DNA of 64,000 nucleotides, taken from the NCBI RefSeq assembly GCF_024623785.1, contig NZ_JANKBZ010000040.1, positions 1-64,000 on the forward strand. Reading direction: 5' to 3'. How positions within the stretch are numbered: the stretch's first letter is position 1; each line of letters starts with the position of its first letter. Below are positions 27,986 to 38,462 of this stretch, in pieces. The notes beneath the pieces were generated by a model that was not told the origin of the DNA, ran no database searches, and saw nothing but the letters and a program-made list of their open reading frames with translations. This DNA is from Archangium lipolyticum. GTDB lineage: Bacteria > Myxococcota > Myxococcia > Myxococcales > Myxococcaceae. The translations under genes were made by a program, and so were the position numbers.

Positions 27986-28141
27986 ATGACGCGCATGGAC
28001 GACGCCGAGAACTCCGCCCAGGAGGAAACCACGCAAGAGCAACTCGCCGAACTCGACAGGCGGCTCGCAGAGCTGGATGAGCACCCCGAGGCGGGTGAAT
28101 CCTGGGATACGGTCAGGGCACGCATCCTCGACTCGTTGTGA
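27986..28141 (+). CDS. Short antitoxin-like protein (addiction-module-like), orphan
   Basis: A 51-residue acidic peptide starting [20 protein letters not shown]. Its second half, [19 protein letters not shown] followed by [10 protein letters not shown], resembles the C-terminal half of the addiction-module antitoxin family PF09720, whose members end with a W-E-VRARL pattern. The usual 70-80 residues are not reached, and no RelE-like toxin follows; the next gene is YigZ. It may be a remnant or an antitoxin acting on an unlinked toxin. Confidence 0.5.
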
Positions 28142-28184
28142 AACGCCCGCTCGAACACCGGAATCCCGAGGACTCGAATCCAGG

Positions 28185-28811
28185 ATGGAAGAAAAACGCT
28201 ACCTCGTCCCGGCACGGCTCCATCGGGTGGAGCAGGAGATCCAGCGCAGCCGCTTCATCACCACGGTTGCCCCAGCTCCGACCGTGGAGGAGGCCAAGGC
28301 GTTCATCGCCCGCGTCCGCGAGGAGTTCGCCGATGCCAACCACAACTGCTGGGCGTACGTGGTGGGACCCCCCGGCTCGACTGGAATGGCGGGCATGAGC
28401 GATGACGGAGAGCCGCACGGCACTGCGGGCCGGCCCATGCTGACTGCACTACTCCACGGCAGCGTGGGGGATGTGGCTGTCGTCGTCACCCGCTACTTCG
28501 GCGGGACGCTCCTGGGCAAGGGCGGATTGGTGCGGGCCTACACTGGCTGCGTCCAGCAGGGGCTCGAGAACCTCCCCACCACCGAGCGCGTGCGTAAGGC
28601 CCGCCTGCGCATCGAGCTCGAGTACGCGAGCGTTGATGGTGTCCGCCGGATGCTCGCCACCCATGAGGCCGAGATCCTCTCGGAGGAGTACGCCGCTACC
28701 GTGGGGTATCAGCTCGAGCTTCCCGTCACCCGGCTCGAGGCGTTCCAGACCGCGCTGCTCGACCTGACGAACGGACAGGTGCTGCTCGAAGTACTCGACC
28801 CCGAGAAGTGA
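28185..28811 (+). CDS. YigZ/IMPACT family protein
   Basis: About 208 residues of the YigZ/IMPACT family. Family blocks are clear: [47 protein letters not shown] and [25 protein letters not shown] proteins act in translation control in eukaryotes; bacterial YigZ is of uncertain role. The start at 28185 gives the normal N-terminus; the open frame begins at 28077 but overlaps the antitoxin-like gene. Confidence 0.92.
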
Positions 28812-28817
28812 CGTGGC

Positions 28818-29402
28818 TCACTTCTCAGGTGGGCTCCGAGGAGCCGGCGGTGGCTTGTAGACTTCCCGGGAGATGTACGCCTTGGGTCGGTCAACGGAGT
28901 CCAGCTCGCCATAGCGGGCAACCACCCTCACCATGGCAACGTTGTCCTGGATGATGGCAACACTCGGGGGAGACACCGGGTCCTTCACCTGCCCACCGCT
29001 GTCATCGACCTCAGCGCAGAAAGGCACCCGGCGCCCTCCAGGAACCTGCGCCGCGTCATAACGAACGATGACATTCTCTCCCGCCGTCCAGACCTGCCCG
29101 AACAGCCGAGTCCTCTCAGGCAGTTGCTTGTAGGGCATGTCGACGTAGCCCACGACAGGACCTTCCTCCAGCCGCGTTGGGCCCCTCTCTCCCAACCGCT
29201 CATCCATGATGATGGGCAAGATGTCTCCTGGCGCGATGCCCAGTTCCGCCATTGCGGCGAGAGACGCCCGAGGGCAATCCTGGAGTCCGGGTGTTCCATC
29301 AGGCCGTAAGCGGACACCAGAGCACCCGGCGACCAGCGCCGCCAGGGCGAGCAGGTGGAGCCATCTTCTCGAAAACGGGTCTGGATTTCTCGACGTGGGC
29401 AT
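28818..29402 (-). CDS. Lipoprotein, DUF2381-linked
   Basis: A 194-residue lipoprotein with lipobox LAALVAGCSG. It is a paralogue of the lipoprotein at 27465-27944: EEGPVVGYV, LFGQVWTAGENVIVRYDAAQ and GRRVPFCAEV line up with the matching parts there. It lies 69 bp after the DUF2381 gene on the same strand and is probably cotranscribed with it. The C-terminus is Pro-rich (YKPPPAPRSPPEK). Function unknown. Confidence 0.8.
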   Translation of the reverse strand: MPTSRNPDPFSRRWLHLLALAALVAGCSGVRLRPDGTPGLQDCPRASLAAMAELGIAPGDILPIIMDERLGERGPTRLEEGPVVGYVDMPYKQLPERTRLFGQVWTAGENVIVRYDAAQVPGGRRVPFCAEVDDSGGQVKDPVSPPSVAIIQDNVAMVRVVARYGELDSVDRPKAYISREVYKPPPAPRSPPEK

Positions 29403-29471
29403 GTAGCGGAAGCGTGGCAGGAAACAGGGCGGGGCGCCAATGTGCCGGGCCCAAGGTGAGCGACCTGGGCT

Positions 29472-30392
29472 TCAGAGCTTCATGTCCAAGTAGCGGATCT
29501 GCCACTCGGGACCATCAGGAGCCACGAGATGAAAGGAGTAGAGGTCCTTGTCCGCCGATGATGGCGTCCGGGTGACGAGCACGACGCGCCCGCTTCCTCC
29601 GGGTGGGATGGTGGACGGACGAGCACGGACGACGACAGGCAACAGTTCCTGGGTCCTGCTGTTGAGAAGCAGCAACTGTTTCAGTGTCCAGCTCTTCTTG
29701 CGGTGACGGTTCGTCACGAGGATGACGCAGGCCGAACGCCCGGCGAGACGCACGCACCAGGCCTGAGCCAGAACATCCTCGCTCCCGGCCAGGACGGGAC
29801 TACCTCGCACCAGATATCGGGAGGCCTCGTCGTCGAGCAGCAGCACCGCGATGGAGACATCGGGGTTGAACTCGTCGTCGCGGTAGCGTTCGAGCTCGGC
29901 CTGTGACCGCGCGTGCTCGAGCTTGAGCGCCTCGTACTCGGCGCTCACTTTCTCGAGCGTGACCCGCAGCGCCCCAGGTGTAGCCGGGTGGAGGAACACG
30001 TCCACCTGCACGTCCGCCAGTGCGGGAGGGCTCGGAACGAGAGCGAAGGACAGGGACGTACCGTCCGCCAGCCGGACCCGCAGAGGCAAGCGGGGCCATA
30101 ACCACGTGCTCGTCGGGGGATGAAGCAGCAACAACCGGCCGGAGACCACCAACCACTCGAAGGGAGACGGGCCCTGCGCCTGAAGTCGTGTCCCTGCCGG
30201 ATCCAGCTCGGACTCGAAGCGCACCACCGTGGGAACGTCGGCGGCGATCCGGATCTCCGCCTCACGGCCCGAGGGCAGTTCGGAGATCACAAGATGGCGC
30301 TGTGGCGTGGGCTCCGCCCGCGTGACTCGCGGCAACAAGAGAACCAGCAGCAGAGCGGCACTGGACATCCAGGAGCGGGCAGGGAGATGCAT
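29472..30392 (-). CDS. DUF2381 / TIGR02268-type myxobacterial exported protein
   Basis: A 306-residue protein with signal peptide (SSAALLLVLLLPRVTRA). It fits the TIGR02268 Myxococcus paralogous family (DUF2381): an N-terminal beta domain ending near LRVRLADGTSLSF, a coiled coil (about 145-175, VSAEYEALKLEHARSQAELE) and a C-terminal domain with VTNRHRKKSWTLKQLLLLN. Members are commonly next to Ser/Thr kinase or lipoprotein genes in myxobacteria. The role is unknown. It heads a two-gene unit with the downstream lipoprotein. Confidence 0.85.
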   Translation of the reverse strand: MHLPARSWMSSAALLLVLLLPRVTRAEPTPQRHLVISELPSGREAEIRIAADVPTVVRFESELDPAGTRLQAQGPSPFEWLVVSGRLLLLHPPTSTWLWPRLPLRVRLADGTSLSFALVPSPPALADVQVDVFLHPATPGALRVTLEKVSAEYEALKLEHARSQAELERYRDDEFNPDVSIAVLLLDDEASRYLVRGSPVLAGSEDVLAQAWCVRLAGRSACVILVTNRHRKKSWTLKQLLLLNSRTQELLPVVVRARPSTIPPGGSGRVVLVTRTPSSADKDLYSFHLVAPDGPEWQIRYLDMKL

Positions 30393-30532
30393 GCCCGGTG
30401 GATTCTATTCCACGCCCCACTCCGCAGGTAGAGCCTCGAATCCAACTTCTTGAAGCAGGTACTCTCACCCCTCGTGCACCTGAGCCCCCTGCACAGCAGG
30501 GGCATGCGCACGCGGAGGCTCGTCACGGCGTG

Positions 30533-33500
30533 CTACTTGGAGGCGGCGCGCTGGAGTTCCTCCAGGAAGGCCGGGAGTTGCGCGTGGTCACTGTAGGAGA
30601 TGACCCGCACGTTGTACTCGCGCTCGTAACGGTCGCGGTCGTTGTCGCTCGGGTCCTTCAACAGTGCGTAGTGGCTGCGGGCCGCGGACTTGAACGCATC
30701 TGCGTTCCACTTGAGTACGAGGTCAAGATCCAGCGGGTCATTCATCCCGTAACCGATGAACAAGAACGTGTACTGCTGGAGCAGGTGGCTCAGGACCGCC
30801 CGGTAGGACGGGTTGGAGCGAACCTCGTGGTATTCGCGCTCGGTCATGACCACGGTGTCGTGGCGCTCCGCCGTCCCGTGGACCTTGAGCAGGACATGGC
30901 GGCCTGACTCCAAGTCGTTGAGAGCCAAGTCGGACTCCCTCCAGGTGTAGACCTGCCTGTGCTGCGTCTCCTGGACCCGTTCGAGGAGCGAATCATAGTT
31001 GGTGGTCAGGATCGCTCGGGCACCGAGCCGCGCCACGGACTGGTGCGCCATCCCCGGGGCTGCATCCGCAGGACGGAAGATGTCGTTGAGGGCCTTCTGG
31101 TAGTCGCGAGCCAGGGCGGAGCGCAGGGAGCCAAGATCCGCGAGCATGACCTCGAGACGCATGCGTCCCTTGAACAGAGCACGCCTGGCTTGGATGCTCT
31201 GCTCGTCCATGGCGCCCCATCGCGCACAGGCATCGAGCAACCGCTGGGGAAGCTGCTGCCACGTGGGGAAGCCGCCCTTGACGTCACGGCCGAGCGAAAG
31301 GCCAGAGCCAATGAACAAGGCGAGCGTATTCGAGCGATGCGCCTCAAGAACAGGTTCCGGAAATTGGATGCTCATGCGGGGTTCGGGTGGAACCACGTTC
31401 ACAGGAGTCAGACCCTCCTTGGAGCTAGATGACTCCATTTCGAGAATCCAGATGTTTCCGATCTCATCCCCTGCACAGATGACATCGGATGTGGATGCAA
31501 CCGAGAGAAAGGCCCCAACTCCGTAGAGCGTATGAAGGCATCGGCCCGAGTCGATGTCCCACAACGACAACGTCCCATCTTCGGATGCGGATACTACACG
31601 GCGCCCATCCGGTGTCACCGTGCAACCTCGCACGCTTCCCGTGTGCCCCTCCAAGGTGACCAGTTCTCGCCCCGTCTCTACCTCCCAGACCTTCAGCCCT
31701 CCGAAAAGGGACGCCGAGACCACACGCCGCCCATCCGGTGTCACCGCATAGCTCCACACCGTAGACCAGTCACCCTGCAACGTGGCCAACTCCTGCCCCG
31801 TCTTCACCTCCCACACCTTCAGCGTCCTATCGGAGGATGCGGACACCATGCGCTGACCATCTGGAGTCACCGCACAGCCCCACACTCCAATCCAGTCGCA
31901 ATCCGGCAGGGTCAACTCCCGTCCTGTCCCCACCTCCCGCACCTTCAAAGTCCCATCGTGGGATGCCAACAGCACGTGCTTCCCGTCCGGCGACACAGCA
32001 CAGCCCCACGCACTCCCGAGCCCCTCCAGTCTGGCCAACTCCCGTCCTGTCTCCACCTCCCACACCTTGAATGATCCATCGTCGGATGCTGCCACCACGA
32101 GCCTGCCGTCGGGCGTCACCGCGCACCCCAACGTCCTCCCGTGCCCCTCCAGCGTAACCAACCTCCGCCCGGTCTCCGCTTCCCATACCTGCAGCGTCCC
32201 ATCATCGGATGCTGACACCACACGTCTCCCGTCCGGGGTCACCGCACAGGCCAGGACCTCGCCCCTATGCTCTCCTTGAGTGGCCAGTTCCCGCCCCGTT
32301 CCGACATCCCACACCTTCAGCGTCCCATCATCGGACGCCGACACCACGCGCCTGCCATCCGGCATCACCGCGCAGCCCCGCACCGGGAACCGATGGCCCT
32401 TCAAGGTAGCCAGTTCCCGCCCCGTTCCGACATCCCACACCATCAACGTCCCATCGTCGGACGCCGACACCACGCGCCTGCCGTCCGGCATCACCGCACA
32501 GCCCCACAGATTCCTCCCACGACCATTGAGGGTGGCCAGCGCTCGCCCTGTCCTTACCTCCCATACTTTCAGCGTCCCATCGGTGGATGCCGACACCACG
32601 CGCCTGCCGTCTGGCATCACCGCGCAGCCCCACACTGGGGCTTTGTGCCCCTCAAGGGTGGCCACCTCTCGCCCCGTCTCCACCTCCCATACCTTCAGTG
32701 TCCCATCGGTGGACGCGGACACCACTCGGCTCCCATCCGGCATCACCGCACAATGGTTTACCGTATTCCCATGACCTGCCAGGGTGGCCACCTCTCGCCC
32801 CGTCTCCACCTCCCACACTTTCAGCAACCCATCAGTAGACGCTGACACCACGCGTCTCCCATCCGGCGTCACTGCGCAGGCCCACAGCTTCCCCCCGTGC
32901 CCTTTCAGGGTGGCCAGTTTCAGCCCCGTCTCCACCTCCCACACCATCAACGTCCCATCGTCGGACGCCGACACCACACGTCTCCCGTCCGGCATCACCG
33001 CGCAGCCCCACACCCGCCCCTCATGGCCTTCCAGGGTGGCCAACTCCCGCCCCGTCTCTACTTCCCAGACTCTCAGCGTCCCATCAGCGCACGCCGACAC
33101 GACTCGGCTCCCGTCCGGCGTCACCGCGCAACCCCGCACCTCCCCTCCCTGACCCGCCAGGGTGCGCTCACTGCCTCCTGTCCTCACGGGATGGCGCAAG
33201 CGCAGCGCAGGCGCTCCTTCCGGAAAGCGCAGCGTCTTTTCAATCCGCGCTGCCGTCCATCCTGAAGAGCGCAGCCGGTTGTAAACGAGCAGGGCCAGTG
33301 CTTTCGGGTCCTTCCTCAACCAATGCGACTCGGCCCGAATAGCTCCATGGAGGATCCTCGAACACTCGGGCTCACGTCCTCCTCCCGCCTCAGCAGCACT
33401 CCGCAAGTCCTCCTCGACAGCAAGTACACCCGCCACGTGGCACTTCGCCTCGAGGTAGCCCAGGTCCGTGTAGAGCCTGCGAGCCAGTTCCCACTCCCCC

Positions 33501-34696
33501 ACCCTCAACCAATGCGTCACGCCATGGCGCAATGCATAATTCCAGCGAAAACCCCGCTCGGACGTCTCGACCGGCCACCGGCACAGATACTCCGCCAACC
33601 TTCGGTGCTCCGTCCTCTCTCGTCCTTCACCAAGCTTCGACAGGATGAAGCTCCGAAAGGATTCGTGAAAGAGTCGCCAAGCTTTTTCGCTCTTCCCGTG
33701 CCCCAACTCCTCCAGGAGGAATGACCGCGACACTCGCAAGAATCGCTCGCCATCATCCAGATCCTTCCACCCGGCCACCGCCGCCAGGCTCGACAGTGGC
33801 AGCGCCTCGCGGGCTACAGCCACCACACCTAGCCCCTCGATTGCCACCCTACGAAGCTCAGCGGGCAACCGCTGGATGCGCTCCCAGCTCTCATCGAGCA
33901 GCGCCTCCAAGCCTCGCGGCAACAACTCGGTCCGCCGCTTCTCGACGGGCTGCTCCCGCAGCCACTCCGCCAGCTTCATGGCGTAGAGCACATTGCCTTC
34001 GGCTCGTCGCACCACCTCATCCACGAAGGCCGACGTCAGCGGTGGCGCGAAACCGGGCGCCATGTGCTCCCAGTACTGACGCACCACCTTCTTGTTCGAT
34101 CCCGCCCACCGCTCGCCATTCAGATCGATGGTGCGAAGGCTCTCCCGCGCCTCCAGCCAGCTCAGGTACGGATACGTAGGCCGCGAAGCACACAGCACCT
34201 TCACCCCAGGTGGCAACACGTGCGGCAAGAAGCGCGGCAGCGGATTGGTGCCCTCGGAGTCCTCCTCGACTTCATCGAGCCCATCCACCACCAACACAAG
34301 CCGCTCCTGGCGTGGCACTAGCACCTTGGCCGATATTCGCTGCAGCAGTTCCCGCAGACGCGACTCGGGCCGTGCATCTGGAGTGGCGAGTTCGGGGTAC
34401 AGCATCTCTACCTGCGCCGCCAGGTTGCGCTTCACCACCTCGGGCCGGTCCCAGTCATCCACGCCACGCCGCAGGAAGTGGTGCGGCGGCACCGGAAGTC
34501 CCGCCTGCTCACGTCGCTTGATCCACTCGGCCAGCAGCGCGCTCTTGCCTATCCCTGGCCCGCCCTTGACCAGCACCCACCCGCGCGACTGAGTACCCAG
34601 CAGGATTGCATCCAGCTCGGTCATCACGTCCTCTCTCCCGAGCAGCGCTTCGTGGCGTCCCCGTTCCTCCTGGAAGTCGATGATGTCGCTCGCCAT
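30533..34696 (-). CDS. STAND NTPase with 14 WD40 blades and C-terminal SIR2 domain (candidate defence protein)
   Basis: About 1387 residues. A NACHT-like STAND NTPase at the N-terminus has Walker A GGPGIGKS (45-52) and Walker B LVLVVDGLDE (133-142), with helical regions to about 510. Thirteen clear WD40 repeats (519-1062) plus one degenerate blade give fourteen, two seven-bladed propellers. A SIR2_2-type domain (about 1125-1387) follows, with FIGSG (1128-1132), TTNYD (1231-1235), KVHG (1271-1274) and FIGYG (1313-1317). Bacterial SIR2 domains of this kind degrade NAD+ in antiphage systems, and STAND proteins sense phage proteins. The ATG at 34696 is chosen because the extra 34 residues to 34798 are in the divergent promoter. 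Inference: a one-gene abortive-infection protein. Confidence 0.88.
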   Translation of the reverse strand: MASDIIDFQEERGRHEALLGREDVMTELDAILLGTQSRGWVLVKGGPGIGKSALLAEWIKRREQAGLPVPPHHFLRRGVDDWDRPEVVKRNLAAQVEMLYPELATPDARPESRLRELLQRISAKVLVPRQERLVLVVDGLDEVEEDSEGTNPLPRFLPHVLPPGVKVLCASRPTYPYLSWLEARESLRTIDLNGERWAGSNKKVVRQYWEHMAPGFAPPLTSAFVDEVVRRAEGNVLYAMKLAEWLREQPVEKRRTELLPRGLEALLDESWERIQRLPAELRRVAIEGLGVVAVAREALPLSSLAAVAGWKDLDDGERFLRVSRSFLLEELGHGKSEKAWRLFHESFRSFILSKLGEGRERTEHRRLAEYLCRWPVETSERGFRWNYALRHGVTHWLRVGEWELARRLYTDLGYLEAKCHVAGVLAVEEDLRSAAEAGGGREPECSRILHGAIRAESHWLRKDPKALALLVYNRLRSSGWTAARIEKTLRFPEGAPALRLRHPVRTGGSERTLAGQGGEVRGCAVTPDGSRVVSACADGTLRVWEVETGRELATLEGHEGRVWGCAVMPDGRRVVSASDDGTLMVWEVETGLKLATLKGHGGKLWACAVTPDGRRVVSASTDGLLKVWEVETGREVATLAGHGNTVNHCAVMPDGSRVVSASTDGTLKVWEVETGREVATLEGHKAPVWGCAVMPDGRRVVSASTDGTLKVWEVRTGRALATLNGRGRNLWGCAVMPDGRRVVSASDDGTLMVWDVGTGRELATLKGHRFPVRGCAVMPDGRRVVSASDDGTLKVWDVGTGRELATQGEHRGEVLACAVTPDGRRVVSASDDGTLQVWEAETGRRLVTLEGHGRTLGCAVTPDGRLVVAASDDGSFKVWEVETGRELARLEGLGSAWGCAVSPDGKHVLLASHDGTLKVREVGTGRELTLPDCDWIGVWGCAVTPDGQRMVSASSDRTLKVWEVKTGQELATLQGDWSTVWSYAVTPDGRRVVSASLFGGLKVWEVETGRELVTLEGHTGSVRGCTVTPDGRRVVSASEDGTLSLWDIDSGRCLHTLYGVGAFLSVASTSDVICAGDEIGNIWILEMESSSSKEGLTPVNVVPPEPRMSIQFPEPVLEAHRSNTLALFIGSGLSLGRDVKGGFPTWQQLPQRLLDACARWGAMDEQSIQARRALFKGRMRLEVMLADLGSLRSALARDYQKALNDIFRPADAAPGMAHQSVARLGARAILTTNYDSLLERVQETQHRQVYTWRESDLALNDLESGRHVLLKVHGTAERHDTVVMTEREYHEVRSNPSYRAVLSHLLQQYTFLFIGYGMNDPLDLDLVLKWNADAFKSAARSHYALLKDPSDNDRDRYEREYNVRVISYSDHAQLPAFLEELQRAASK
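31511..33142 (-). repeat. Tandem WD40-coding repeat array (13 units of about 126 bp)
   Basis: Thirteen units of 41-42 codons with nearly the same DNA in several neighbours; the codons for PDGRRVVSASDDGTL and TGRELATL recur with few changes. Such sameness points to recent duplication or gene conversion, and to possible copy-number change. It lies inside the STAND gene. Confidence 0.9.
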
Positions 34697-34755
34697 ACCC
34701 GCCCAGTATGTTAACAGAGCACGCGTCCCCCCTTCGTTACCCATGCCGCACCGCA
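34697..34755. promoter_or_regulatory. Divergent promoter of the STAND gene and its neighbour
   Basis: Only 59 bp separate the two divergent starts. It holds CAGTATGTTAACAGAG, with the palindrome GTTAAC and the most A/T-rich bases of the gap, so the -10 regions may overlap. No certain -35 was seen. Confidence 0.45.
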
Positions 34756-35118
34756 ATGAGCACCGAGCTGGAAAAGGTCCTGAATTCACTTGGAGCATTG
34801 GCCGGGCAGCACTCCAGTAAGCAGGAAACAGTGTTCACCCTCGAGACGGCGGCCAAGGCGCTCCACTTCATCCGGCACATCGGCAGGATGAATGACTTCT
34901 GGGAGTACGCCAGGGTCTTCAACACCGAGGAAGCCTGGCCGAAGCCCCTGCACTCCTTCGCCACTCGGGATGAGGCCCTGACCTGGTTGCGCACCCAGTC
35001 GAATCTTCCCTATGAGGCTGTGCTGGAAGTATCGGGTGCGCTCTACAACGCCGCACGTAGAAGCGACGGTGAGTGGACCCTCATCCGATTCCCCTCGCTC
35101 GAGGAGTTGGAGGACTGA
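34756..35118 (+). CDS. Hypothetical protein divergent from the STAND gene
   Basis: A 120-residue soluble protein, mixed helix and strand, starting MSTELEKVLNSLGALAGQHS. No family recognised. Parts such as FATRDEALTWLRTQSN and the C-terminal DGEWTLIRFPSLEELE suggest a small compact domain. It is divergent from the STAND-SIR2 gene with only 59 bp between, so shared control is plausible; whether it is a partner, an inhibitor or unrelated is open. The start is set at ATG 34756; the frame begins at 34708. Confidence 0.7.
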   Translation: MSTELEKVLNSLGALAGQHSSKQETVFTLETAAKALHFIRHIGRMNDFWEYARVFNTEEAWPKPLHSFATRDEALTWLRTQSNLPYEAVLEVSGALYNAARRSDGEWTLIRFPSLEELED

Positions 35119-35134
35119 ATCCCAGGTTGGGGCA

Positions 35135-35722
35135 TCAGGGCCCGGGTGCCTGTGTGGACCTGGGAGCCCAGAGACGTCCAAGGTCGAGCGGCTCGGCGTC
35201 GAAGGGCTCGGCACGCACCACGTCCTCTCCTCCGTGGTGCGCCGCAAGCTGCCAGCCCTGCGATCCTCGATGGTAGATCTCCAACGTGTGAGCTCGCGGG
35301 TCCAACAACCACGCGTGGCTCACACCCTCCTGATGATAGAGGGACAGCTTGCGCCCCCGATCCAGCGCGACCGTGGAGGGAGACAACACCTCACAGACCC
35401 AATCGGGCGCCAGCTCGATGAAGGGCTCATCCCGTTCGAACAACCCGGGTGCCCTCTCTCGGCGCCAGCCCGCCAGGTCAGGCACCAGCACCTGCCGACT
35501 GAAGTGCCACTCGGGCTCCCTCACGATCCACCAGCCGCCCGGTCCTCGCGTCCCTAAGCAGAAGGCGTCCCCCAGCTTCGACAGGAGCACCGAGACGGCC
35601 CACAAGTTCCACGCGGATGGCCGGGGAAAGGCGTACAGCTCGTCGTCGATGATCTCCCCCACCCACCCCGGCGGTAACGCCTCGATGTCCTCGTAGGTGG
35701 CTGGACGCTTTCCCCGACCCAT
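35135..35722 (-). CDS. Uma2 family (DUF820) protein
   Basis: A 195-residue Uma2/DUF820 protein with the complete family pattern: YEDIEALPPGWVGEIIDDEL at the N-terminus, VPDLAGWRRER, LAPDWVCEVLSPST and the catalytic-like RGRKLSLYHQEGVSHAWLLD. The fold is PD-(D/E)XK-like, but activity is unproven. It is convergent with the 120-residue gene, 16 bp apart. It is more complete at the N-terminus than the Uma2 gene at 16315-16875. Confidence 0.88.
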   Translation of the reverse strand: MGRGKRPATYEDIEALPPGWVGEIIDDELYAFPRPSAWNLWAVSVLLSKLGDAFCLGTRGPGGWWIVREPEWHFSRQVLVPDLAGWRRERAPGLFERDEPFIELAPDWVCEVLSPSTVALDRGRKLSLYHQEGVSHAWLLDPRAHTLEIYHRGSQGWQLAAHHGGEDVVRAEPFDAEPLDLGRLWAPRSTQAPGP

Positions 35723-35805
35723 CTCCGCTCCTCCCGCGGGCCTTCCTGCCCGACCGCTCGCATTCTACAGGAAGGTCTGACGGGAGAGGTAGTGCCGCCC
35801 TCCGC

Positions 35806-36789
35806 TCAGCGCGCCGCGCGCGCCAGCCCGGTCACTCCCAACACCACACCGCCCGCCAGCGCCGCGAGGCCCGCCGCCAGCGAGTAGCGCTTCCACTTCG
35901 GCGTGGGCGGCACCGGGCCATAGGGGCCCACGCTCCTCGCCATCGGATGGAAGAGATTGCCCTCGGGCCGCTCGACGGGCTCGTCACGCATCTGCATCCG
36001 CGCGCCCCACCGCCCCATGATGAACCTACCCACCGCCGGGGCGACCCCGTTCAGCCACAGTATCAGCCTGCCCTGCAGGAACACCGGCACCGACGTCTTC
36101 CCCGGGTTCCTCGCGCACCGCACCACCGCTCGCGCCACCACGTCCGGGTCATACGTCGGCGGCACCGGCTTGGGCGCCAATCCAAACATCGTTGGCGCGT
36201 GCGCGAACATGTTCGTCGCCACCGAGGGCACCAGCACGTTCGACACCTGGATGCCCGAACCCACCAGCTCCATCTCCAGGCTCTTCGCCCACCCCAGCGT
36301 CGCGTGCTTGCTCGCGGAGTACGCCGACAACAACGGCGCCGAGCCCTTCGACAACATCGACTGGATGTTGAGGATGTGCCCACTGCCCTGCTGCCGGAAA
36401 TGGGGCAGCACCGCCCGCGCGAAGCGCATGAAGCCAAAACAGTTGATGTCGAAGATGCGGGTGATGTGCTCCCACGGCAGCTCGTCGAAGAGGCCGTAGG
36501 ACTGCACCCCCGCGTCATTCACCAGGATGTCCACCCGGCCGTAATGCGCCAGGCATTCGCGCACCACCTGGTCCACGTCCCCCTGCACCGTCACGTCCCC
36601 GGGCACCGCGATGCACTCCACGCCCTTCTCCCGCATCAGGTGGCGCAGCTTCTCCAGCGCCTCCACCCGGCGCGCGGTGATGCACAGCCTCACCCCCGCC
36701 TCTCCCAGCCGCACCGCCGCCTGCCAACCCACCCCGCTCGATGCCCCCGTCACGATGGCGACCTTGCCCCTCAGGTCCTGGCGAGCCAT
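35806..36789 (-). CDS. Short-chain dehydrogenase/reductase with C-terminal membrane anchor
   Basis: About 327 residues. A classical SDR Rossmann domain (VTGASSGVG, VNDAG in place of NNAG, Ser in NIQSMLS, catalytic YSASK) is followed by an extension and a C-terminal hydrophobic helix (YSLAAGLAALAGGVVLGVTG) that should anchor it to the membrane. Substrate unknown. The ATG at 36789 has GGAGAGGA immediately upstream. The frame runs on to 37143 without support. Divergent from the FAD oxidoreductase gene. Confidence 0.9.
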   Translation of the reverse strand: MARQDLRGKVAIVTGASSGVGWQAAVRLGEAGVRLCITARRVEALEKLRHLMREKGVECIAVPGDVTVQGDVDQVVRECLAHYGRVDILVNDAGVQSYGLFDELPWEHITRIFDINCFGFMRFARAVLPHFRQQGSGHILNIQSMLSKGSAPLLSAYSASKHATLGWAKSLEMELVGSGIQVSNVLVPSVATNMFAHAPTMFGLAPKPVPPTYDPDVVARAVVRCARNPGKTSVPVFLQGRLILWLNGVAPAVGRFIMGRWGARMQMRDEPVERPEGNLFHPMARSVGPYGPVPPTPKWKRYSLAAGLAALAGGVVLGVTGLARAAR

Positions 36790-37028
36790 GTCCTCTCCTC
36801 TGTATCCCGGTTCCCGCCGCCAGCCCTCGGGCCCGCTCGGCGGCCCCACGTGGCACTCCGCCGGGGAAGGATGGGAATTCCCGCCCCCTCCCGGCATCCT
36901 GCCCTCCCCTCCTCCCACGCCCGCCCGCCCGGATTCCGTGGCACCGGCCGACCCCTGACGTCCACTGATGAACGCAAGCCATTGGCATCTTCCTCGCGTA
37001 CCCATCAGGTCGGGTGAAGCTAGAGGAC

Positions 37029-38462
37029 ATGAGCTCGGTGCTCGATGCGGTCGTCGTGGGCGCGGGCCCCAACGGGCTCGCGGCCGCCGTCTCCCTGGCC
37101 CGCGCGGGCCGCTCGGTGCGGGTGCTCGAGGCAGCCCCCACACCCGGCGGGGGTGCGCGCTCCGCCGAGCTCACCCTCCCCGGCTTCGTCCACGACGTCT
37201 GCTCCGCCATCCATCCCCTCGCCGCCGCCTCCCCCTTCTTCCGCCAACTCCCCCTCGGTGCCCATGGGCTCGAGTGGGTCCACCCCGATGCCCCCCTCGC
37301 CCACCCGCTCGAGAACGGCACCGCCGCCCTCCTCGAGCGCGGCCTCGAGGCCACCGCCCAGGGGCTCGGCCCCGACGCCGACACGTATGTGAGATGGATG
37401 CGCCCCATGGTGCGCGCCTTCGACGACGTGATGGCCCAGATGGCCGACCCCCTGCGCCTCCCCCGCCGCCCCCTCCGCCTCGCCCGCTTCGGCCTGCGCG
37501 CCCTCCGCCCCGCGCACTCGCTCGCCAGGAACGCCTTCCGCGGCCCCCTCGCCCGCGCCCTCTTCGCCGGCTCCGCCGCACACTCCTTCTCCGCCCTCGA
37601 ACGCCCCTTCACCTCCGCCTTCGGCATCCTCCTCCTCGCCTCCGGCCATGCCGTCGGCTGGCCCTTTCCCCGTGGCGGCACCCAGAAGCTCGTCGACGCG
37701 CTCGTCAGCTACCTGCGCGCGCTCGGCGGCGAGGTCGTCACCGGCCACCGCGTGTACAACGTGGATGAGCTGCCCCGCGCCCGCGCCGTGCTGCTCGACG
37801 TGACGCCCGCGCAGCTCGTGAAGCTCGCCGGCCACCGGCTTCCTCCTCACTACGTCGAGGCGCTCAAGCGCTTCCGCTACGGGCCCGGTGTCTTCAAGGT
37901 GGACTGGGCCCTCTCCGGTCCCATTCCCTGGCGCGCCGCCGCGTGCGCACGCGCGGGCACCGTGCACCTCGGCGGTACGTTGGAGGAGATCTCCGCCAGC
38001 GAGGCCGCCGTCGCACGCGGCGAGGTCCCCGAGTCCCCCTATGTGCTCGTGGCCCAGCACACCCTGTTCGATGGCAGCCGCGCCCCCTCGGGCCAGCACA
38101 CCGGCTGGGCCTACTGCCACGTACCCCATGGCTGCACCGAGGACATGACCGGGCGCATCGAGGCCCAGATGGAGCGCTTCGCCCCCGGCTTCCGCGACCG
38201 CATCCTCGCCCGGCACACGCGCTCGCCCGCGCAGTACGAGGCCTACAACGCCAACTTCATCGGCGGCGACATCTCCGGCGGCGCCATGGAGGGAATGCAG
38301 TTGTTCGCCCGGCCCATGGCCCGCCTCGTCCCCTACGCCACGCCCGACCCGCGCCTCTACCTGTGCTCGTCCTCCACCCCGCCCGGCCCCGGTGTTCACG
38401 GGCTGTGTGGCTTCCTCGCCGCGCGGGCGCTGCTCGCCAGCGAGGTGTGGCGCAAGGGCTGA
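37029..38462 (+). CDS. FAD-dependent oxidoreductase, phytoene-desaturase-like
   Basis: About 477 residues of the NAD(P)/FAD-dependent oxidoreductases related to phytoene desaturases (CrtI-like). The N-terminal FAD-binding fold is clear (VVVGAGPNGLAAAVSLARAG, then VLEAAPTPGGGARS), and the C-terminal FAD contact is SSTPPGPGVHGLCGFLAA. No carotenoid gene is adjacent, so it is not necessarily a carotenoid enzyme. The ATG at 37029 (after TAGAGGAC) is preferred over GTG 37014. Confidence 0.88.
   Translation: MSSVLDAVVVGAGPNGLAAAVSLARAGRSVRVLEAAPTPGGGARSAELTLPGFVHDVCSAIHPLAAASPFFRQLPLGAHGLEWVHPDAPLAHPLENGTAALLERGLEATAQGLGPDADTYVRWMRPMVRAFDDVMAQMADPLRLPRRPLRLARFGLRALRPAHSLARNAFRGPLARALFAGSAAHSFSALERPFTSAFGILLLASGHAVGWPFPRGGTQKLVDALVSYLRALGGEVVTGHRVYNVDELPRARAVLLDVTPAQLVKLAGHRLPPHYVEALKRFRYGPGVFKVDWALSGPIPWRAAACARAGTVHLGGTLEEISASEAAVARGEVPESPYVLVAQHTLFDGSRAPSGQHTGWAYCHVPHGCTEDMTGRIEAQMERFAPGFRDRILARHTRSPAQYEAYNANFIGGDISGGAMEGMQLFARPMARLVPYATPDPRLYLCSSSTPPGPGVHGLCGFLAARALLASEVWRKG

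What the first reader, a model, noticed from the sequence alone, without database searches (positions are those of the whole stretch)
30533..34696. STAND NTPase - 14-blade WD40 - C-terminal SIR2: a candidate one-gene NAD-depleting defence protein
Seen: Walker A GGPGIGKS only 45 residues from the start, Walker B VDGLDE, thirteen clear and one degenerate WD40 blades, then a SIR2_2-like domain with GSG, TTNYD, KVHG and FIGYG motifs. Known: SIR2 domains in DSR, Thoeris ThsA and SIR2-STAND (Avs5-type) systems consume NAD+ on infection, and in those the SIR2 part is N-terminal. Inference: here the effector is at the C-terminus, with a double propeller as sensor, so an infection signal bound by the propellers could trigger oligomerisation and NAD+ loss. 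I know of no described system with this order, but have not searched.
Basis: partly seen in the sequence, partly recalled or inferred. Interest (0 to 1): 0.9.

Follow-up and report, generated by a model that had tools for sequence, protein, structure and literature searches.

The report
Bacterial immune receptor with tail-end killer domain
This myxobacterial gene looks like a bacterial relative of animal, plant and fungal immune receptors, with a fast-changing two-propeller sensor and an NAD-destroying SIR2 domain at its tail instead of its head; in a sister species the copy at the same genomic site ends in a different NAD-type killer domain (TIR), which suggests a self-destruct receptor whose weapon can be exchanged.

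Summary
The minus-strand gene 30533-34696 (1387 aa, an Archangium-type myxobacterium) is NACHT-type STAND NTPase, APAF-1-like helical region, 13 clear plus 1 degenerate WD40 blades, then a C-terminal SIR2 domain with an intact catalytic Asn/His pair (N1233, H1273 = ThsA N112, H152).

Going further, I found eight more genes of the same NACHT-WD40 chassis in five other Myxococcaceae genomes. Five more end in SIR2, one in TIR and two in a nucleoside phosphorylase (PNP) domain. The TIR version sits at the same chromosomal site as the window gene. All three are known NAD- or ATP-destroying immune effectors, so the C-terminal slot is an exchangeable effector slot.

The flanking domains are orthologous between species, but the inner blades are not position by position. 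Blades are homogenised within each gene and vary mainly at five surface positions, four of which match those selected in fungal HNWD receptors.

Best reading: an infection- or non-self-triggered NAD-depleting receptor, a bacterial NLR with reversed polarity. Function is untested, and the window is no known-system defence island. No published system with this order was found in the library searched. Verdict: new variant of a known kind.

The parts
30533..34696 (-). complete gene, 1387 aa: STAND (NACHT) - helical - 14 WD40 blades - SIR2
33497..34696 (-). STAND/NACHT NTPase, residues 1-400, no N-terminal effector
   Evidence: Pfam NACHT 8e-10; Foldseek of the N-terminal model: Apaf-1 1e-7, Avs3 7e-7
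34541..34564 (-). Walker A GGPGIGKS (residues 45-52)
34271..34291 (-). Walker B VVDGLDE (residues 136-142)
33182..33499 (-). helical region, residues 400-505 (a paralogue matches Pfam APAF1_C at 7.5e-5)
31535..33181 (-). 13 clear WD40 blades (two propellers with the 14th), the presumed sensor
31433..31534 (-). degenerate 14th blade, residues 1055-1088
31361..31432 (-). variable linker, residues 1089-1112 (8-29% identical between orthologues): the junction after which SIR2, TIR or PNP follows
30536..31360 (-). C-terminal SIR2 domain, residues 1113-1387
   Evidence: Pfam SIR2_2 6.5e-30; PDB: FAM118B 1e-16, ThsA 3e-16, DSR2 2e-10, KomC 1e-8
30992..31006 (-). TTNYD; N1233 aligns with ThsA N112
   Evidence: alignment; invariant
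30875..30886 (-). KVHG; H1273 aligns with ThsA H152
   Evidence: alignment; invariant
28812..35800 (.). variable insertion site between conserved flanks (28077-28811 and 35806-38462); the flanking genes are 8.2 kb apart here and 1.8 kb apart in G006

Best explanation
It is a one-gene bacterial NLR with reversed polarity. The two WD40 propellers are a fast-diversifying sensor that binds an infection or non-self protein. Binding relieves inhibition of the NACHT ATPase, ADP is exchanged for ATP, the protein oligomerises, and the C-terminal SIR2 domains are brought together or unlocked and hydrolyse NAD+, stopping the cell (abortive infection). The C-terminal slot is modular: relatives on the same chassis carry TIR (NADase) or PNP (ATP/nucleotide-cleaving) domains there. 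Shown here: domain order, intact ATPase and NADase motifs, effector replacement at one chromosomal site, blade homogenisation and hypervariable positions, patchy distribution. Inferred: the ligand, oligomerisation, NAD+ loss, and phages as the trigger.
For: Domains and motifs. SIR2 catalytic pair aligned with ThsA N112/H152, and profile matches to NADases ThsA, DSR2, KomC and to FAM118B. Same chassis with TIR_2 (7.5e-13) and PNP_UDP_1 (2.7e-16 and 1.3e-16) in the same slot; PADLOC names these domains as ThsB/CBASS TIR and PN-superfamily effectors. The TIR copy lies between the same flanks as the window gene. The NACHT tree puts TIR and PNP bearers among SIR2 bearers, at least two replacements. 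Blades: no positional orthology of inner blades; in the TIR copy 11 blades are 95% identical in DNA and all amino-acid variation lies in 5 of 42 positions, p = 5e-11. Foldseek: Apaf-1 and Avs3 for the NTPase, 2ymu and Apaf-1 for the propellers. One orthologue follows Mokosh-like mkoA/mkoB genes, another lies near dynamin-like and SNF2-helicase genes. Present in 6 of 195 Myxococcota genomes.
Against: No experiment. The immediate window is not a classical defence island; the strong PADLOC hits elsewhere in it look like a kinase and ATPases. The family is small and confined here to Myxococcaceae. An effector at the far end of the propellers would sit at the rim, not the hub, of an Apaf-1-like wheel, so proximity activation is not obvious. 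The NTPase model has low confidence (pLDDT 62). One orthologue has 10 rather than 14 blades.
Confidence: 0.6

Rival explanations
1. Allorecognition or kin discrimination: the receptor senses a polymorphic protein of non-kin bacteria (a delivered toxin or exchanged component) and kills or arrests the recipient, as the HNWD receptors do in Podospora. Same machine, different trigger.
For: Homogenised blades with four hypervariable positions matching the hnwd positively selected codons; hosts are social bacteria; no phage-defence neighbours in the window.
Against: One orthologue adjoins Mokosh genes. SIR2, TIR and PNP are the effectors used repeatedly in phage defence (PMC10952713). Nothing here points to a conspecific ligand.
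Confidence: 0.22
2. A regulatory or developmental STAND protein in which SIR2 is a deacetylase or NAD sensor rather than a killer.
For: Myxobacteria have many WD40 proteins, several in this genome; SIR2 domains can be deacetylases (general knowledge).
Against: Closest solved relatives are NADases and FAM118B rather than classical deacetylases. Replacement by TIR and PNP makes sense for a shared nucleotide-depleting role, not for deacetylation. Patchy distribution at a variable site.
Confidence: 0.1
3. Chance fusion or decaying gene: SIR2 read-through behind an ordinary WD40 STAND protein.
For: None beyond the unusual order; the linker is poorly conserved.
Against: Same order in six genes, SIR2 domains 56-88% identical with catalytic residues invariant; same SIR2 subfamily at the C-terminus of another chassis in Polyangium.
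Confidence: 0.02

Closest known systems
Antiviral STAND / bacterial NLR proteins (Avs, bNACHT), especially Avs5 (SIR2-STAND)
   Same: STAND NTPase coupled to a sensor and a SIR2 NADase; a single gene; Avs5 depletes NAD+ on sensing a phage protein (PMC12931631)
   Different: In those the effector is N-terminal and the sensor C-terminal (PMC10952713, PMC10907252). Here the effector is C-terminal, the sensor is a WD40 double propeller, and the PADLOC Avs5 match covers only the SIR2 part (E 0.003)
Apaf-1 (animal apoptosome)
   Same: STAND NTPase, helical domain, two WD40 propellers; Foldseek hits on both halves; APAF1_C hit in a paralogue
   Different: No CARD; an enzyme sits behind the propellers instead of a recruitment domain in front
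HNWD receptors (HET-E/HET-D/HET-R) of Podospora
   Same: NACHT plus WD40 array under concerted evolution, variation concentrated at the propeller interaction face; the four selected codons 7, 9, 25, 27 have the same 2-16-2 spacing as positions 10, 12, 28, 30 here (PMC2873952)
   Different: The HET effector is N-terminal; eukaryotic allorecognition; different effector family
WRAP, Nostoc punctiforme (PDB 2ymu)
   Same: 14 near-identical WD40 blades in two propellers behind a bacterial STAND ATPase, suggested to act in immunity (PMC9218822); top Foldseek hit at 40% identity
   Different: WRAP forms the C-terminus and has no enzyme behind it; its TIR is on a neighbouring gene
ThsA (Thoeris), DSR1/DSR2
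   Same: SIR2 NADase domain with the same catalytic Asn/His
   Different: N-terminal SIR2; sensor is SLOG (ThsA) or the C-terminal part of DSR; no STAND-WD40 chassis

Membership tests
STAND/NLR-type NTPase superfamily | P-loop NTPase with Walker A/B and winged-helix/helical region | tested here: met
   Pfam NACHT/AAA_16/NPHP3_N; motifs invariant; Foldseek Apaf-1/CED-4/Avs3
STAND/NLR-type NTPase superfamily | repeat sensor domain | tested here: met
   13+1 WD40 blades
Antiviral STAND (Avs) / bNACHT as described | N-terminal effector, C-terminal sensor | tested here: not met
   No domain before the NACHT; SIR2 behind the propellers
Antiviral STAND (Avs) / bNACHT as described | protects against phage | not testable with these tools
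   needs phage challenge
Avs5 | sequence match to the Avs5 family over its STAND and sensor | tested here: not met
   PADLOC Avs5 E 0.0027, SIR2 part only
Defence-associated SIR2 (SIR2_2) NADase | SIR2 domain with catalytic Asn and His | tested here: met
   N1233 and H1273 invariant
Defence-associated SIR2 (SIR2_2) NADase | NAD+ hydrolysis on activation | not testable with these tools
   needs enzyme assay
Thoeris | ThsA SIR2-SLOG with ThsB TIR partner gene | tested here: not met
   No SLOG domain; no TIR gene among the neighbours scanned, no recurrent partner
HNWD-like rapidly diversifying WD40 receptor | blade homogenisation plus hypervariable interaction-face positions | tested here: met
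HNWD-like rapidly diversifying WD40 receptor | formal positive selection (dN/dS above 1) and allelic polymorphism within a species | tested here: inconclusive
   pN/pS 0.70-1.08 at variable positions against 0.29-0.48 elsewhere, near saturation; no within-species alleles available
DGR-diversified sensor | reverse transcriptase beside the gene | tested here: not met
   no RT near any copy in G000, G002, G003

The most novel reading that the evidence does not exclude
A class of bacterial NLRs with the effector at the C-terminus, behind a WD40 double propeller that renews its specificity by blade shuffling and diversification of a few surface residues (as fungal HNWD receptors do), and with interchangeable NAD/ATP-destroying effectors (SIR2, TIR, PNP) swapped at a variable chromosomal site.
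Probability: 0.55. Interest if true: 0.85.

Novelty: new variant of a known kind. Interest (0 to 1): 0.75.

Why it matters
Known bacterial and eukaryotic NLRs are usually described as effector first, sensor last. A conserved family with the order reversed, yet using the same nucleotide-depleting effectors in one exchangeable slot, would show that NLR signalling does not need the effector at the hub of an apoptosome-like wheel, and would let the activation geometry be tested. The blade pattern, near-identical repeats differing only at the recognition face, suggests a bacterial counterpart of fungal non-self receptors and offers natural sets of sensors that differ at a few residues, a direct way to read out what the propellers bind.

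Tried and rejected
Recent permutation from the N-terminal SIR2-NACHT-WD40 protein of the same genome (G000:C19) was rejected: its SIR2 lies in a distant clade. DGR mutagenesis of the blades was rejected: no reverse transcriptase near any copy. A two-gene system was rejected: no shared partner among orthologue neighbourhoods. A known-system defence island in the window was not supported. Viral contigs gave no relative of the SIR2 subfamily; plasmids gave only distant SIR2 proteins, at most 30% identical. A more distant chassis search (E up to 1e-12) found no further members. The genome-contig scan with SIR2 gave eight loci, only Archangium, Polyangium and one MAG close. The Foldseek list for the C-terminal model is swamped by propellers, so the SIR2 fold rests on sequence-profile matches and predicted secondary structure. 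The automatic blade finder undercounted some proteins; counts rest. Two sets of fragments were first requested out of frame and redone. A profile of the NTPase half found no PDB chain by sequence beyond WD40 fragments.
Full report
OBSERVATION. The minus-strand ORF 30533-34696 encodes 1387 residues. Pfam finds NACHT/AAA_16/NPHP3_N at residues 18-176, a WD40 array, and SIR2_2 at 1228-1366 with E 6.5e-30. Nothing precedes the NTPase: 44 residues come before the P-loop. AlphaFold on residues 505-1387 (six-sequence alignment, mean pLDDT 78) gives about 54 strands in four-strand blades, then an alpha/beta domain. Foldseek ranks the 14-blade bacterial propeller 2ymu first, with full-length Apaf-1 fourth. 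The N-terminal model is weak (pLDDT 62) but its best Foldseek hits are Apaf-1, Avs3 and CED-4. By phmmer, N1233 and H1273 align with ThsA N112 and H152 (positions counted from the printed alignment). Profile search of the PDB gives FAM118B 1e-16, ThsA 3e-16, DSR2 2e-10, KomC 1e-8.

RELATIVES. The genome belongs to the genus of Archangium lansinium: G003 has the contig length of the record NZ_JAPNKA010000001.1. A search with the C-terminal 313 residues in 96 genomes of the family gave five full-length relatives in five other genomes at 54-83% identity, all with SIR2 within 6 residues of the C-terminus, and a two-gene variant in G035. In G035 the same SIR2 subfamily follows an unrelated small ATPase, beside a WD40-STAND gene. 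In Polyangium fumosum a 65% identical SIR2 ends a 2178-residue protein with pentapeptide and WD40 repeats and a Walker-motif ATPase. In a deltaproteobacterial MAG a related SIR2 (45-48% identical) is N-terminal to NACHT and an FGE-type domain, beside a reverse transcriptase gene. The SIR2 tree joins these nine with 100/98 support, and separates them from the N-terminal SIR2 of another NACHT-WD40 protein of the same genome.

EFFECTOR REPLACEMENT. Searching with the NTPase half gave nine genes in six genomes of 195 Myxococcota. Genome G002 holds four. One ends in SIR2; one ends in TIR (Pfam TIR_2 7.5e-13; PADLOC ThsB 7.6e-17); two end in a nucleoside phosphorylase domain (PNP_UDP_1 2.7e-16 and 1.3e-16; PADLOC PN-superfamily effector). 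The homology runs through blade 14 (AGD..GN.W..E) and stops at a variable linker, after which SIR2, TIR or PNP begins. The TIR copy sits between the same flanking genes as the window gene, with the same downstream DUF2381 neighbour. In G003 the site has the SIR2 version; in G006 it is only 1.8 kb long and lacks the gene; in G004 it holds other genes. In the NACHT tree TIR and PNP bearers are scattered among SIR2 bearers, which needs at least two replacements. TIR and SIR2 deplete NAD+, and PNP effectors degrade ATP, in phage defence (review PMC10952713). Exchange among these three is what an effector slot predicts and is hard to explain if SIR2 were a deacetylase.

SENSOR. The flanks of the array are orthologous between G000 and G003 (NACHT 83%, SIR2 88%) but the WD region is 64% identical. 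Inner blades 2-12 (numbered 1-11 in the script) show no positional orthology: same-index identity 0.632 against a mean of 0.629, permutation p 0.39; nine of ten pairs have p above 0.05. End blades keep some signal, as the all-blade test shows for some pairs. In G076 the blades are one residue shorter (41 aa), and each gene has its own consensus: concerted evolution. Variation concentrates at positions 9, 10, 12, 28 and 30 of the 42-residue blade. In the TIR copy 11 inner blades are 95% identical in DNA; of 13 variable nucleotides 11 lie in those five codons (hypergeometric p 5e-11) and every amino-acid difference is there. Positions 10, 12, 28 and 30 have the spacing of codons 7, 9, 25 and 27, which are under positive selection in Podospora hnwd repeats and lie on the top face (PMC2873952). 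pN/pS at the variable positions is 0.7-1.1 against 0.3-0.5 elsewhere; values are near saturation, so I claim concentration of change, not formal positive selection. No reverse transcriptase lies near any copy in G000, G002 or G003, so this is not a DGR.

CONTEXT. None of the 45 other window proteins scanned, nor the nearest genes, is a convincing known-system component; the strong PADLOC hits look like a kinase and ATPases. One orthologue (G006) lies about 40 bp behind a third gene that follows mkoA- and mkoB-like Mokosh genes (PADLOC 1e-181 and 2e-105), another (G005) near dynamin-like and SNF2-helicase genes. No partner gene recurs next to the orthologues, so the system is one gene.

MECHANISM. 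The most likely reading: autoinhibited monomer, ligand on the propeller faces, nucleotide exchange, oligomerisation, SIR2 activation, NAD+ loss, arrest or death of the cell. The steps after the domain assignments are inferred from Apaf-1, Avs and ThsA/DSR. The C-terminal position puts the enzyme at the spoke tips of an Apaf-1-like wheel, so activation may work by release from the propeller or by contact between wheels. What triggers it, phage or non-kin bacteria, is open; I put about 0.6 on infection and 0.22 on allorecognition.

NOVELTY. In the open-access library (not most subscription papers) I found no NLR with this order and no report of C-terminal effector replacement. The papers read state the opposite order for NACHT and STAND systems. 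C-terminal effectors are known in vWA-MoxR conflict systems (PMC8195603), so the idea is not without parallel. I file it as a new variant of the STAND/bacterial NLR kind.

Noticed in passing
L099:2846-6241 (G006) and L096:8540-12100 (G034): FHA-GGDEF proteins with a C-terminal SIR2_2 domain: a second, unrelated case of SIR2 at the C-terminus, joined to a diguanylate-cyclase-type domain.
   Followed up: partly
L061:5045-9741: Deltaproteobacterial MAG: reverse transcriptase gene beside a SIR2-NACHT-FGE protein, a likely DGR-diversified STAND receptor with a SIR2 closely related to the window's subfamily.
   Followed up: partly
L060:1292-7828: Polyangium fumosum 2178-aa protein with a nitrilase-like N-terminus (by eye, no Pfam hit), Walker-motif ATPase, pentapeptide and WD40 repeats and C-terminal SIR2: possibly two effectors on one receptor.
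   Followed up: partly
L051:8461-12303 (G000:C39): Same genome: SIR2-CHAT-AAA_16-TPR protein, two candidate effectors on one STAND protein.
   Followed up: no
L043:5091-8966 (G035): 1291-aa protein with about 14 near-identical WD40 blades at its N-terminus, apparently a membrane segment and then a STAND-like ATPase, overlapping the ATPase-SIR2 gene: a split, rearranged version.
   Followed up: partly
window 35135-35722 and 29472-30392: Uma2-type nuclease-fold gene and a DUF2381 gene flank the receptor at this variable site; DUF2381 recurs at the site in G002 and G004, Uma2 in G003, G004, G005 and as a fragment in G002.
   Followed up: no
L042:8090-11764 (G006): Orthologue with only 9 clear blades plus one degenerate, a loss of exactly four blades; such a count does not make two seven-blade propellers.
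   Followed up: no
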